DNA of 64,000 nucleotides from Serratia entomophila. GTDB lineage: Bacteria > Pseudomonadota > Gammaproteobacteria > Enterobacterales > Enterobacteriaceae. The stretch lies in the NCBI RefSeq assembly GCF_021462285.1, contig NZ_CP082787.1, forward strand, positions 2,480,001 through 2,544,000, read 5' to 3'. Position 1 is the stretch's first letter. Each line of letters begins with the position of its first letter. The notes below the pieces were generated by a model. It ran no database searches. It saw only the letters and a program-made list of their open reading frames with translations, and had not been told where the DNA came from. Of this stretch, positions 28,574-32,623 are shown piece after piece. Position numbers and translations under genes: made by a program.

Positions 28574-29848
28574 GTGTTTCGCCAGGAAGCGATCGATAAC
28601 CAGAAATTGAAGTGGCGTGGCCGGGCATTGTTGTTGCCTGGCATTCCTGTTTGGCTCACAGCAGGATTGTGCCTGTTTTTTTTCATTGCGTTTCTCACCT
28701 TCGTTATTGCCGGCACCTATACCCGAAGGGTCAACGTGACAGGCGAGATCAGCACCTATCCGCGCGCCGCCAACGTCTATTCCGCCGTTCAGGGGGTGGT
28801 GGTTAAACAATTTGTCACCGAAGGACAAGTAGTCGCCGCCGGTACTCCCATTTACCAGATCGACGTCAGCAAGAGTACCCGCAGCGGAGTGCTTAGCGAT
28901 AATCAGCGCCGGGATATCAACGCTCAGTTGGCGCGTATTGCGCACATCATCAGCCGACTGGAAAGCAGCAAGCAGGCCACGCTCGCGATGCTGGAAAAAT
29001 AGAAAGCACGGTATACCGCCGCGTTTGCGCACTCCACCGATATTCTCCGACGAGCCCAGGAAGGGATACGCATTATGAAGGAGAATATGGAGAATTACCG
29101 GCACTATCAGGCCAAAGGGCTGATCAACAAGGACCAGCTTACCAACCAAGTGGCGCTGTATTATCAGCAACAGAACAACCTGCTCGGCCTGTCCGGTCAA
29201 AACGAGCAAAACGCCCTGCAGATCACCGTGCTGGAAAGTCAGCTCCACACCCAGGCCGCCGAATTCGATAACCAGATTTACCAAATGGAGCTGCAGCGCT
29301 ATGAGCTGCAAAAGGAGTTGTTGAACATAGATGCTGGCGGGATGATCGTCGTGCGCGCGCTGGCCGACGGGCGCATCGACTCTCTGAGCGTCACTGTCGG
29401 ACAAATGGTTAACCTCGGCGACAGTCTGCTGCAGGTGATCCCGCACGAAATAGATCACTATGCGCTGGTGCTCTGGGTACCCAACGACGCCATCCCTTAT
29501 ATTACCGTCGGTGATAAGGTCAATGTGCGCTATGACGCCTTTCCGGCGGAGAAATTCGGTCAGTTCGCCGGCATCGTCTCCGTCATATCCAAATCCCCCG
29601 CCTCACCGCAGGAAATGCTGACCTACCAGGGGGCTCCAAAAGTCGCTTTGACCGCTGCCGTACCGTACTACAAGGTGATTGTCAGACCGAAAAAACAGGA
29701 CATTGGCTACAATGGCAAACGGCTGAGCCTGGAAAACGGTATGAAAGCGCAAAGTACTCTGTTTCTCGAAGAAAGGAAGATTTATCAATGGATGCTATCA
29801 CCGTTCTACGACATGAAACACAGTTCTGCGGGGCCAGTCGATGAGTAA
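28574..29848 (+). pseudogene. CvaA/HlyD-type microcin secretion adaptor, interrupted by in-frame TAG
   Basis: One reading frame of 424 codons, split by a TAG at 29000-29002 (codon 143); the frame continues without a shift. The GTG at 28574 is the likely start. Residues about 34-53 are the single N-terminal membrane anchor (LTAGLCLFFFIAFLTFVIAG), followed by a biotinyl-lipoyl-like unit (VVKQFVTEGQVVAAGTPIYQID), a coiled coil (about 110-250) and the second lipoyl half and beta barrel (DGRIDSLSVTVGQMVNLGDSLLQV). The gene overlaps the next by eight bases, as in cvaA-cvaB. It would join the exporter to TolC. The stop removes two thirds of the protein unless it is suppressed or restarts at the ATG at 29075, which lacks the anchor. 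Confidence 0.85.
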
Positions 29849-31940
29849 GCTTACCTTCAAACAGCTGATCAGCCAGTTGGACATGCGCCTGCGTCATAGA
29901 GTCCCGATGGTTCACCAAACCGAATCTTCGGAGTGCGGTCTTGCCTGCCTGGCGATGATATGTGGCTACTACGGCAAAAATATCGATCTGATAGCATTAC
30001 GCCGGCAATTCAACCTGTCTAACCGCGGCGCCACTCTGACCGGGTTGACCGGTATAGCTGAACAGCTGGGACTGGTCACCCGCCCACTGTCGTTGGATAT
30101 GAACGAACTCGGTGCGCTGAAAACACCCTGCATTTTGCATTGGGAATTCAACCACTTCGTGGTGCTGGTCAGCGTGAAACATAATCGTGTGGTGTTGCAT
30201 GACCCAGTGCGTGGCCACCGGACCGTAAGCCTGACGGAGCTGTCACACAGTTTTACCGGAGTAGCGCTCGAGGCCTGGCCCGGCAGTGAATTTACCGCCG
30301 ACAGCGTCCTCCACAAAATTCGCCTTCGCACGCTGATCGGCAGCGTGCACGGTTTGAAAGGGGCGCTCGGCAAAATATTTTGTCTGTCTCTGGTATTTGA
30401 AACCATCAACCTGGTGATGCCGATTGGCACGCAGCTGGTGATGGATCACGCTATACCCGCCGGGGATCGCGGGTTGCTGACGCTCATCTGCGCCGGACTG
30501 ATGATGTTCATTCTATTGCGGGCGGCCATCGGTATGGTGCGAGCCTGGTCCGGACTGGTCATGGCGACGCTCATCAATGTACAGTGGCAGTCCGGTCTGT
30601 TTACCCATTTGCTGCGCCTGCCACTGGGCTACTTTGAACGACGAAAACTGGGTGACATTCAGTCGCGTTTCGGCTCATTGGACACGCTGCGCAGCACCTT
30701 CACCACGAGTATCGTCGGCGCCATCATGGACGGTATCATGGTCATTGGTGTGTTGGTGATGATGGTGCTGTATGGCGGCTGGCTGACCTGGGTGGTAATC
30801 GCGTTCACCGCACTATACGTTTTGCTTCGCCTCCTGACCTACGGCTATTACCGAAAACTGTCCGAGGAGGCCCTGGTCAGAGAGGCGCGGGCCGGTTCGT
30901 ATTTTATGGAAACGCTGTACGGCATCGCTACCGTCAAAATGCAGGGCATGGCGGAACGCCGCATTGCTCACTGGCTCAACCTAGAAATAGACACCATCAA
31001 TACCGGTATTCGGATCACCAAAATGGACATGTTGTTTGGCGGCATCAGTACGCTGTTCGCCGCCTGTGATCAGGTCGCAATTCTGTGGCTGGGAACCAGC
31101 CTGGTGATCGATAATCAAATGACCATCGGGATGTTTGTCGCGTTCGGCGCCTTCCGGGGGCAATTCTCTGAGCGCATCGGATCGCTGACGGAATTTTTAC
31201 TGCAGCTACGCATGATGAGTCTGCATAACGAGCGTATTGCCGATATCGCTTTGCACCCGCGGGAGAATCGTAAGCCTGATCTTCATTGCGATACGAATCT
31301 GAAGCCGGTGGGATTGACGACCCATGGGTTGAGCTATCGCTATGACAGCCAGTCGCCAGCCATCTTTAAGGCTCTGGAACTCACGGTTAAGGCGGGAGAA
31401 AGCGTGGCTATCGTTGGTCCATCCGGCGCCGGCAAAACCACGTTGATGAAAGTACTATGTGGGCTATTTCCCCCAGATTCAGGCCGAGTTGAGGTGAATG
31501 GCATTGATATCCAGCAGCTCGGTATCAATAACTACCACAAGATGGTCGCCTGTGTAATGCAGGACGACAAACTGTTCTCCGGTTCTATCCGAGAGAATAT
31601 CTGTGGGTTTGCGGACAAGGTAGATGACTCGTGGATGCAGGAATGTGCTCGCGCCAGCTTTCTACACGAAGTGATCATACGAATGCCGATGGGGTATGAA
31701 ACGCTGATCGGGGAACTGGGTGAAGGATTATCCGGAGGGCAAAAGCAGCGGCTATTCATTGCACGGGCAATCTACAAGAAACCGGCAATTTTGTTCTTGG
31801 ATGAGGCTACCAGTGCGTTGGATAAAGAGAGTGAAGCTGTGGTTAATCAAGCGATCAAGGGACTTCGTATTACTAGGGTTATCATTGCACACAGAGAAAG
31901 TACTATTGAGTCAGCTGATAGAGTAATATCTTTAACATGA
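29841..31940 (+). CDS. CvaB-like microcin ABC exporter with C39 peptidase domain
   Basis: A 699-residue peptidase-containing ABC transporter. Residues about 20-145 are a C39 peptidase: VHQTESSECGLACLAMI holds the catalytic Cys32 (preceded by the oxyanion Gln26), and FNHFVVLV and LHDPVRG place His105 and Asp121, the same positions as in CvaB. A six-helix membrane domain spans about 165-440. The nucleotide-binding domain has GPSGAGKTTL (Walker A), LSGGQKQRLFIARAI and ILFLDEATSALDKES (Walker B). It cuts double-glycine leaders and exports the mature peptide. It overlaps the adaptor gene upstream. It appears intact. Confidence 0.93.
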   Translation: MSKLTFKQLISQLDMRLRHRVPMVHQTESSECGLACLAMICGYYGKNIDLIALRRQFNLSNRGATLTGLTGIAEQLGLVTRPLSLDMNELGALKTPCILHWEFNHFVVLVSVKHNRVVLHDPVRGHRTVSLTELSHSFTGVALEAWPGSEFTADSVLHKIRLRTLIGSVHGLKGALGKIFCLSLVFETINLVMPIGTQLVMDHAIPAGDRGLLTLICAGLMMFILLRAAIGMVRAWSGLVMATLINVQWQSGLFTHLLRLPLGYFERRKLGDIQSRFGSLDTLRSTFTTSIVGAIMDGIMVIGVLVMMVLYGGWLTWVVIAFTALYVLLRLLTYGYYRKLSEEALVREARAGSYFMETLYGIATVKMQGMAERRIAHWLNLEIDTINTGIRITKMDMLFGGISTLFAACDQVAILWLGTSLVIDNQMTIGMFVAFGAFRGQFSERIGSLTEFLLQLRMMSLHNERIADIALHPRENRKPDLHCDTNLKPVGLTTHGLSYRYDSQSPAIFKALELTVKAGESVAIVGPSGAGKTTLMKVLCGLFPPDSGRVEVNGIDIQQLGINNYHKMVACVMQDDKLFSGSIRENICGFADKVDDSWMQECARASFLHEVIIRMPMGYETLIGELGEGLSGGQKQRLFIARAIYKKPAILFLDEATSALDKESEAVVNQAIKGLRITRVIIAHRESTIESADRVISLT

Positions 31941-31941
31941 C

Positions 31942-31990: not shown

Positions 31991-32194
31991 TTAACTCTGA
32001 GGCTTGAATAAGTAACAAATTAACTTGTAAATTGCCAGAATAATAGAAATAGAAAACCAAATTGACACAACAATTTTTGACAGATTTTCTGGAGCTGAAT
32101 ACAAATAGTCTTTACTCACCCCTGCACCAGACAAGAAAAATGATGACAAGAACAACCCTATAATAATCGCACCGATTTTTTGCATTTTTTTCAT
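31991..32194 (-). CDS. Small two-helix membrane protein, candidate microcin immunity protein
   Basis: A 67-residue protein from the ATG at 32194; an in-frame GTG at 32206 and an ATG at 32185 are alternatives. Two strong membrane segments are visible: IGAIIIGLFLSSFFLSGAGV near the start, and KIVVSIWFSISIILAIYKLI near the end, joined by a short polar loop (SKDYLYSAPENLS). Size, two-helix layout and position 66 bases downstream of the microcin precursor on the same strand match immunity proteins such as Cvi (78 residues). I do not recognise sequence similarity to a named one. The region is AT-rich, unlike the surrounding genome. Confidence 0.65.
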   Translation of the reverse strand: MKKMQKIGAIIIGLFLSSFFLSGAGVSKDYLYSAPENLSKIVVSIWFSISIILAIYKLICYLFKPQS

Positions 32195-32260
32195 TACCCT
32201 AACCACCCGTTTTCAAAAGGATGGAACACCGTTCCATCCTATATAAATCATGGAGGAGTC

Positions 32261-32623
32261 TTACCAACTGCAACCGCCAGATCCATTTTTACCACTGCAA
32301 CTACCACCACTTTTGTTCCCGCCAGGTCCTGTTCCGACATTGCCACCACCATGGGCGGAGTCTTTAAAACATCCGCCTGTAATAGCCCCTTTAGCCAACC
32401 CAGCAGCCATACCCGCAGGACCTCCAACTGCACCTTCTGCCATACCTGCTAGCATGCCGTTGACACAATCTGGTGAGGTATGTTTACCATAAAAACCGCC
32501 AGATTTATTTCCATCTTTTTTGGAGCTACCTTTCGTTTTCCCACCATTATCAACACGATCGCCGCCATTATTCCCTCGGCCACCAGAGACAAAATCAAGC
32601 ATTGAAGGATCAAGAACTTTCAT
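32261..32623 (-). CDS. Novel class II (colicin V-like) microcin precursor
   Basis: A 120-residue precursor starting at the ATG at 32623, seven to eight bases after AAGGAG. The leader MKVLDPSMLDFVSGG is 15 residues, the same length and pattern as the CvaC leader (L-x4-LD-x-VSGG), ending in the double glycine cut by C39 peptidases. The 105-residue mature peptide begins RGNNGGDRVDNGG. It is basic and Gly/Ser/Asn-rich at first, then has a glycine-zipper-like hydrophobic core (NGMLAGMAEGAVGGPAGMAA, AKGAITGG) flanked by Cys, and a Gly/Ser-rich tail ending GGCSW. Four cysteines could form two disulfides. The mature peptide does not match a microcin I know. Confidence 0.85.
   Translation of the reverse strand: MKVLDPSMLDFVSGGRGNNGGDRVDNGGKTKGSSKKDGNKSGGFYGKHTSPDCVNGMLAGMAEGAVGGPAGMAAGLAKGAITGGCFKDSAHGGGNVGTGPGGNKSGGSCSGKNGSGGCSW

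What the first reader, a model, noticed from the sequence alone, without database searches (positions are those of the whole stretch)
28574..32623. Undescribed colicin-V-type microcin locus
Two converging units are seen: adaptor plus C39-peptidase exporter read rightward, and precursor plus small two-helix membrane protein read leftward. This is the same logic as the cvaAB / cvi-cvaC operons of plasmid ColV. The exporter keeps Cys32, His105 and Asp121 at the CvaB positions, and the precursor has a CvaC-like 15-residue double-glycine leader. The peptide itself is not one I know. The AT-rich peptide genes inside a GC-rich chromosome suggest acquisition.
Basis: partly seen in the sequence, partly recalled or inferred. 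Interest (0 to 1): 0.92.

Follow-up and report, generated by a model that had tools for sequence, protein, structure and literature searches.

The report
Serratia microcin locus with interrupted adaptor
This is a small bacterial weapon system (a class II microcin, its export pump and a likely immunity protein) inserted into a Serratia chromosome; it belongs to a recently surveyed group, one of its export genes is interrupted here, and a related genome has kept little more than the likely immunity gene at the same spot.

Summary
In detail: a CvaAB-type exporter reads rightward (28574-31940) and converges on a leftward pair, a 120-aa double-glycine precursor (32261-32623) and a 67-aa two-helix protein (31991-32194). 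The exporter is 73% identical to MchF and 72% to CvaB, with Cys32/His105/Asp121 in place. The adaptor gene has an in-frame stop at 29000-29002; its two halves otherwise match MchE/CvaA.
The precursor has no Pfam or NCBIfam match and no convincing similarity to CvaC, MchB or McmA beyond the leader and glycine content. Named relatives are mostly Serratia, with distant ones in Enterobacter, Citrobacter and Buttiauxella. Class II microcins as a class were described in S. marcescens in 2026 (PMC13101503); I could not read its sequence file, so 'undescribed' is unproven.
New here: the insertion site is empty in 23 of 25 comparable genomes, and the closest of them keeps only an intact, constrained 67-aa gene plus an exporter stub, which fits immunity outliving the weapon. 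Closely related exporters carry quite different peptides. A GTAAA-N5-GTAAA (CpxR-like) box is conserved upstream of most exporter-linked relatives of the precursor. The own genome holds an intact 90%-identical exporter that could work in trans. Activity is untested.

The parts
28574..29002 (+). N-terminal part of the HlyD/CvaA-type membrane-fusion (adaptor) gene, GTG start, ending at an in-frame TAG
   Evidence: 62% identical to MchE residues 1-142
29075..29848 (+). C-terminal part of the same adaptor gene, same reading frame, first ATG after the stop
   Evidence: 75% identical to MchE residues 168-424; Pfam HlyD_3 7e-12
29841..31940 (+). peptidase-containing ABC exporter (PCAT), CvaB/MchF type, 699 aa
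   Evidence: Pfam C39 + ABC_membrane + ABC_tran; 73.1% to MchF, 72.1% to CvaB, catalytic residues at same numbers
31942..31974 (.). strong hairpin between the converging units, probable two-way terminator
   Evidence: RNA fold -18.4 kcal/mol, z -5.6 against 200 shuffles; the simple terminator scan did not list it
31991..32194 (-). 67-aa two-helix membrane protein, candidate immunity protein
   Evidence: 16 of 19 genus-wide matches lie 64-313 nt downstream of a precursor match on the same strand; intact and constrained as an orphan in G002; motif LxGAG...YxAP...S
32261..32623 (-). 120-aa microcin precursor gene
32579..32623 (-). 15-residue double-glycine leader MKVLDPSMLDFVSGG
   Evidence: 8 of 15 identical to the CvaC leader
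32264..32578 (-). 105-residue mature peptide: RGNNGGDR N-terminus, Gly-rich stretch between Cys38 and Cys70, C-terminal Cys94/Cys103 (mature numbering)
32657..32671 (+). GTAAAAGTATGTAAG, 9 of 10 match to the CpxR consensus GTAAA-N5-GTAAA, 34-48 nt upstream of the precursor start
   Evidence: exact in 6 of 9 related loci, but 3.4% of shuffles match the window's copy as well
32680..32708 (-). possible promoter (TTGAAA, 17 nt, TATTAA), conserved in position among relatives
   Evidence: footprint; not listed by the consensus scan
28341..33001 (.). inserted segment relative to relatives' empty site (boundaries approximate)

Best explanation
A chromosomally inserted class II microcin locus, most like class IIa. 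The 120-aa precursor would be cut after its GG leader by the exporter's C39 peptidase and leave the cell through exporter, adaptor and the host's TolC. The mature 105-aa peptide most likely combines a receptor-binding end (I favour the C-terminal Cys loop) with a Gly-rich helical hairpin, held by a Cys pair, that acts on the inner membrane of related enterics; the 67-aa protein gives immunity. In this genome the adaptor gene carries a recent in-frame stop, so the locus cannot build its own complete exporter; the strain either exports through its intact paralogous exporter or is an immune non-producer. Shown: gene content, homologies, catalytic residues, stop, insertion, pairing, retention of the orphan gene. 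Inferred: cleavage, export route, disulfides, target, killing, immunity.
For: Exporter homology and catalytic triad. GG leader and class-typical size. Of 19 matches to the 67-aa protein in 30 genus genomes, 16 lie just downstream of a precursor match. At the same site 23 of 25 genomes with both flanking genes are empty (111-187 bp between them), one (G002) keeps only the last ~35 exporter codons plus an intact 67-aa gene, dN/dS 0.15 against the window's; that orphan protein is identical to a protein named S. ficaria found on 22 contigs. Low dN/dS of precursor (0.09), exporter (0.07) and adaptor pieces (0.08, 0.05) against S. marcescens FY plasmid p1, so the stop is recent or an error. The own genome holds an exporter 90% identical with a 424-aa uninterrupted adaptor. 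48 of 49 full-length homologues have a Cys in the last four residues; 39 of 49 have a Cys pair flanking the Gly-rich segment. Class II microcins of S. marcescens inhibit bacteria: 17 of 40 tested (PMC13101503, main-text parts 1-4 of 8 read).
Against: No activity data for this peptide or for any relative that I could identify. The adaptor is interrupted. The AlphaFold2 model of the precursor is poor (mean pLDDT 50). 13 of 29 precursor matches have no detected 67-aa relative beside them, so other immunity proteins must exist or the pairing is not universal. Three 67-aa matches have no precursor partner, one of them weak. Related cassettes also sit far from any close exporter. The two sources I saw disagree on which end of class II microcins is the antibacterial domain (PMC13101503 part 3: N-terminal; PMC13174018 passage: C-terminal).
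Confidence: 0.83

Rival explanations
1. A decaying locus kept only for immunity: the peptide is no longer exported and the 67-aa gene is what selection retains.
For: Stop in the adaptor; G002 has exactly this end state; the own genome's second copy (L039) keeps only the last ~41 exporter codons beside precursor and small gene.
Against: Precursor, exporter and adaptor pieces show no sign of relaxed selection; three further exporter pairs without interruption in the same genome could export in trans.
Confidence: 0.4
2. The in-frame stop is a sequencing or assembly error and the locus is fully functional.
For: One stop codon in an otherwise clean, constrained frame.
Against: No second assembly of this strain or species was available to me, so there is no direct evidence either way.
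Confidence: 0.15
3. The Gly-rich secreted peptide is not a bacteriocin but a signal, adhesive or surface peptide.
For: Long hydrophilic Gly/Asn-rich N-terminus; no activity tested.
Against: A paired membrane protein retained as an orphan, patchy presence and plasmid carriage, and high divergence of cargo beside a conserved exporter are typical of bacteriocins.
Confidence: 0.07
4. The 67-aa protein serves export or maturation rather than immunity.
For: It is encoded beside the exporter in at least four exporter-linked loci (window, L040, L047, L128).
Against: It also travels with precursors far from any close exporter and survives without precursor and with only an exporter stub.
Confidence: 0.1

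Closest known systems
Colicin V (microcin V) locus cvaAB / cvi-cvaC
   Same: Converging exporter and peptide units; exporter 72% identical with the same catalytic residues; adaptor pieces 61% and 74% identical; 15-residue GG leader, 8 of 15 identical
   Different: Order of peptide and immunity genes reversed; mature peptide and candidate immunity protein show only short, composition-type matches to CvaC and Cvi; adaptor interrupted
Microcin H47/M locus (mchI-mchB, mchE-mchF, mcmA) of E. coli Nissle 1917
   Same: Exporter 73% identical, adaptor pieces 62% and 75%
   Different: C-terminus holds two Cys instead of the class IIb Ser/Gly tail; no acyltransferase gene such as that of the Nissle locus inside the inserted segment
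Class II microcins of Serratia marcescens (SM001-SM080, PMC13101503)
   Same: Same genus, same exporter class, in the Db11/SM39 example microcins encoded opposite to PCAT/MFP, mostly unannotated immunity proteins, no class IIb tail
   Different: Sequences are in a supplement I could not read; identity with any SM number is untested
S. marcescens FY plasmid p1 locus (NZ_CP053379.1, L128)
   Same: Same four genes in the same convergent layout: precursor 83%, 67-aa protein 78%, exporter 89%
   Different: Plasmid-borne; adaptor annotated as one gene of 1,275 nt; CpxR-like box exact

Membership tests
Class II microcin | Small ribosomal precursor with 15-18-residue double-glycine leader | tested here: met
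   120-aa precursor, 15-residue GG leader
Class II microcin | Mature peptide below about 10 kDa | tested here: met
   9,779 Da computed
Class II microcin | C39-peptidase ABC exporter (PCAT) with catalytic residues | tested here: met
Class II microcin | Intact membrane-fusion (adaptor) partner at the locus | tested here: not met
   in-frame stop at 29000-29002; an uninterrupted adaptor with a 90%-identical exporter exists elsewhere in the genome
Class II microcin | Adjacent inner-membrane immunity protein | tested here: inconclusive
   adjacent two-helix protein, orphan retention; protection not tested
Class II microcin | Antibacterial activity | not testable with these tools
   none
Class IIb (siderophore-modified) microcin | Gly/Ser-rich ~10-residue C-terminus and modification genes beside it | tested here: not met
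   C-terminus GSCSGKNGSGGCSW holds two Cys; inside 28341-33001 only adaptor, exporter, small protein and precursor were recognised. An AMP-binding enzyme gene at 25509-27050 lies outside the insertion and is present in 19 of 30 genus genomes
Class IIa microcin | Disulfide bonds as only modification | not testable with these tools
   Cys pairs conserved; bonds inferred
Microcin V itself | Homology of mature peptide and immunity protein to CvaC and Cvi | tested here: not met
   best stretches short and of composition type (composition correction off; best E 8e-5 is to MchB in Gly-rich sequence)
CpxR-regulated promoter | GTAAA-N5-GTAAA site bound by CpxR | tested here: inconclusive
   9 of 10 match in the window, reached by 3.4% of shuffles; exact in 6 of 9 related loci; binding not testable

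The most novel reading that the evidence does not exclude
One plasmid- and chromosome-borne exporter chassis circulates through Serratia and neighbours with exchangeable microcin cargo; the exporter-linked promoters of this precursor group share a CpxR-type box at the start of transcription, so these weapons are tied to envelope stress; and when loci decay, the immunity gene is kept alone under selection, leaving populations immune to neighbours that still produce the microcin.
Probability: 0.35. Interest if true: 0.6.

Novelty: new member of a known kind. Interest (0 to 1): 0.42.

Why it matters
It gives a testable precursor/immunity pair unlike the classical E. coli microcins compared here, a natural series of states at one chromosomal site (empty, full with a broken adaptor, immunity gene plus exporter stub) for studying how bacteriocin loci decay, and a candidate link between envelope stress and microcin expression. 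Because closely related exporters carry unrelated cargo, exporter similarity cannot be used to predict the peptide.

Tried and rejected
Fur box upstream of the precursor: best match 11 of 19, shuffles average 11.5: rejected. An 'exporter-specific' reading of the RGNNGGDR motif: rejected, because the motif also occurs in genomes (G005, G006, G007, G018) whose only exporter match at E up to 1e-100 is about 41-42% identical. Structure of the precursor: AlphaFold2 model too poor to use beyond a weak helical hairpin at 51-82, so no fold search was run. PDB sequence search with a 10-sequence precursor profile: 0 hits at E up to 10. Literature search for the motif string GNNGGDR: 0 papers. The neighbours outside 28341-33001 are not part of it: outer-membrane factor in 25 of 30, DUF1493 protein in 26 of 30, AMP-binding enzyme in 19 of 30 genus genomes; the RND pump gene was not searched in relatives. 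Rfam and viral contigs were not searched.

Controls and selection: the nine loci of the promoter footprint were grouped after I saw the repeat in a 13-locus alignment. Of 28 upstream stretches scored, 8 reach 9 of 10 or better and all 8 are among those nine; the ninth, L127, scores 8 of 10, which 41% of shuffles reach. L141/L142 are near relatives and L039 is in the window's own genome, so independence is limited. Shuffles kept base composition only. Eleven sequences judged by eye to be truncated or frameshifted were left out of the Cys count (49 of 60 used, the window's included). The 29 rows of alignment A3 were picked mostly among sequences with the Cys pair, so its 'invariant Cys' is not used as evidence. 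In one search only the 7,998 candidates sharing most words were scored. dN/dS values come from a simple counting method on single pairs.
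Full report
Observation. The window is G000:C1:2480001-2544000 of a 5.15-Mb genome. It is a Serratia by its company: other genomes of its genus have contigs of the same length as records named S. marcescens MSU97, S. plymuthica NBRC 102599, S. inhibens S40, S. proteamaculans UME734 and a S. liquefaciens MAG; its species is not known to me. The exporter (29841-31940) has Peptidase_C39, ABC_membrane and ABC_tran domains, is 73.1% identical to MchF of E. coli Nissle 1917 and 72.1% to CvaB, and keeps Gln26, Cys32, His105 and Asp121 at the same numbers. 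The adaptor is interrupted by an in-frame TAG at 29000-29002; its pieces match residues 1-142 and 168-424 of MchE/CvaA. Leftward lie a 120-aa GG-leader precursor and a 67-aa protein with two hydrophobic helices. Neither has a Pfam or NCBIfam match. A strong hairpin separates the converging units.

Family. A first search of 5.8 billion proteins gave 12 homologues at E up to 0.1; 7 of the 12 rows name an organism, all seven Serratia. A profile search gave 50 at E up to 0.01 among the 7,998 candidates scored, adding distant relatives in Enterobacter ludwigii, Citrobacter and Buttiauxella. A scan of 84,980 named species genomes with one motif found 37 stretches, 7 of which encode relatives, all Serratia. 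In 30 same-genus genomes 18 have a match, 29 places in all. The 67-aa protein has 19 matches in 15 of 30 genomes. Of these 19, 16 lie 64-313 nt downstream of a precursor match on the same strand; 13 of the 29 precursor matches have no such partner. Of 60 precursor sequences I set aside 11 as truncated or frameshifted; of 49, 48 have a Cys within the last four residues and 39 a Cys pair flanking a Gly/Ala-rich stretch. The 67-aa family keeps G13, L21, G23-A24-G25, Y32, A34-P35 and S39 in 14 of 14 aligned rows, two of them partial. Disulfides are inferred; by PMC5311971 (passages) MccL has two, MccV one, and the first two Cys of McpM are needed for activity.

Insertion and decay. Both flanking genes (DUF1493 protein and outer-membrane factor) lie next to each other in 25 genus genomes, the window's included. 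In 23 the gap is 111-187 bp, in G002 662 bp and in the window 4,745 bp. Of 15 sites compared with the window by blastn, 14 lack the locus, with left homology ending at 28340 in 11 of 14 and right homology starting at 33002-33053 in all 14. The fifteenth, G002, is the closest of the genus set by outer-membrane factor (93%) and AMP-binding enzyme (95%). It keeps the last ~35 exporter codons and an intact 67-aa gene; homology stops at 32253, just short of the precursor. The orphan protein equals P0015, named S. ficaria, on 22 contigs; whether it is an orphan on each I did not check. dN/dS between window and orphan is 0.15 (dS 0.80; 67 codons, so a rough value). A second precursor copy in the window's genome (C1:4208900, L039) lies next to a tRNA-Phe gene and likewise keeps only the last ~41 exporter codons. 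The window's adaptor pieces are as constrained as intact ones (dN/dS 0.05-0.10 against two relatives; 0.07-0.17 between those relatives), so the stop is recent or an error.

Exporter and cargo. Exporters 87-89% identical occur on plasmids of Serratia, Klebsiella and Raoultella (40 best of at least 5,000 records listed). Beside exporters 75-90% identical I found: this precursor family (window, L040, L047, L128); a related family with SGA-ending leaders (L127, L136); a Gly/Ser-rich peptide beside a TcdA/TcdB-type glycosyltransferase (L035, L130, L133, L138/139), and a shorter one beside a glycosyltransferase 32-34% identical to that (L141, L142); a 109-aa peptide on a S. grimesii plasmid (L129); and a 77-aa peptide on the ATCC 13880 plasmid (L132, L140). 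Of the 34 loci scanned the leader filter found no candidate in 12: L126, L131, L134, L135, L137, L143, L144, L146, L147, L148, L150, L151. The own genome has five C39 matches, four of them exporters of this kind; the paralogue at C1:2382129 is 90% identical and has an uninterrupted 424-aa adaptor. Whether it exports this precursor is untested; MccH47 and MccM share one exporter (PMC13101503, discussion read).

Promoter. In the upstream DNA of nine loci the conserved parts are a TTGA at -35, a TTAATAAT-like -10, GCTTTACATAAnTTTACA and the ribosome site. The repeat, read on the other strand, is GTAAA-N5-GTAAA, the CpxR consensus (PMC3158067, passages: GTAAA(N)4-8GTAAA, N5 sites upstream of ppiA and cpxR in Yersinia). 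It is exact in 6 of 9, 9/10 in the window and L047, 8/10 in L127; of 19 other upstream stretches, E. coli cva/mch, the glycosyltransferase operons and four adaptor genes included, none exceeds 8. Alone the window's copy is weak (3.4% of shuffles do as well). The own genome has 20 exact sites and 13 of the pattern read backwards, so exact sites as such are barely enriched; one lies upstream of the second copy, another 54 nt upstream of the gene that scores best as CpxR (493 bits, cut-off 341), as in Yersinia. The box lies at or just past the expected start of transcription, which would suit repression; this is inference. A search for CpxR with microcin and bacteriocin gave 13 papers, 12 listed, of which I looked into two; one, on microcin PDI, shows control by EnvZ/OmpR.

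Known or new. PMC13101503 (abstract, main-text parts 1-4 of 8, section 12 and passages read; supplements not open) reports 93 putative class II microcins in S. marcescens, 40 tested, 17 active, and an example layout with PCAT and MFP opposite to the microcins. It states that none of the 93 has a class IIb tail, nor has this one. Earlier Serratia papers labelled such genes 'microcin H47' (PMC4391916, PMC4506600, passages). So the kind is known; the peptide family has no named, tested member that I could identify, which rests and is limited by the closed supplement and by papers not held.

Verdict. A real class II microcin locus of the ColV/H47 exporter kind, interrupted in its adaptor, best filed as a new member of a known kind; the more interesting points are the orphan candidate immunity gene at the same site, the exchange of cargo, and the CpxR-like box.

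Noticed in passing
L035 4806-10229 (G000:C1, about 128 kb left of the locus): Operon of a Gly/Ser-rich GG-leader peptide (94 aa), an 89-aa small protein, a 428-aa protein matching Pfam TcdA_TcdB glycosyltransferase (2.5e-28) and an exporter pair about 90% identical to the window's: candidate glycosylated microcin. Relatives of the glycosyltransferase are on 14 plasmid records, 7 of them Serratia/Klebsiella at 74.5%.
   Followed up: partly
L134 4880-5439, L135 10339-10898, L137 4512-5071, L126 7717-7980: In three genomes the same operon has lost most of the peptide and glycosyltransferase genes but keeps the small protein (88-93% identical) and the exporter; in an 18-kb stretch of G002 only the small protein (69%) was found beside a 42% exporter: a second case that looks like immunity outliving the weapon.
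   Followed up: partly
L039 8898-9239 (G000:C1:4208897-4209238): Second precursor/small-gene pair in the window's genome beside a tRNA-Phe gene, with only the 3' end of an exporter left.
   Followed up: partly
L036 3624-3917 and 4565-4858; L037 11695-11988: Two further exporter loci of the genome (60% identical) with GA-leader peptides of microcin look, in one of them two similar copies.
   Followed up: no
L149 9677-9910 and 10004-10276: Two GG-leader peptides made almost wholly of Gly/Asn-rich repeats beside a 43%-identical exporter in another genome of the genus.
   Followed up: no
L129 1602-1931: S. grimesii plasmid: 109-aa GG peptide beside an 89%-identical exporter whose PVNVPVPVLVGPSWNGS stretch recalls microcins E492/N (recalled from memory).
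   Followed up: no
P0042, P0047, P0048: Enterobacter ludwigii (121 contigs), Buttiauxella and Citrobacter peptides share the Cys-flanked Gly-rich core and a C-terminal Cys but not the RGNNGGDR N-terminus.
   Followed up: no
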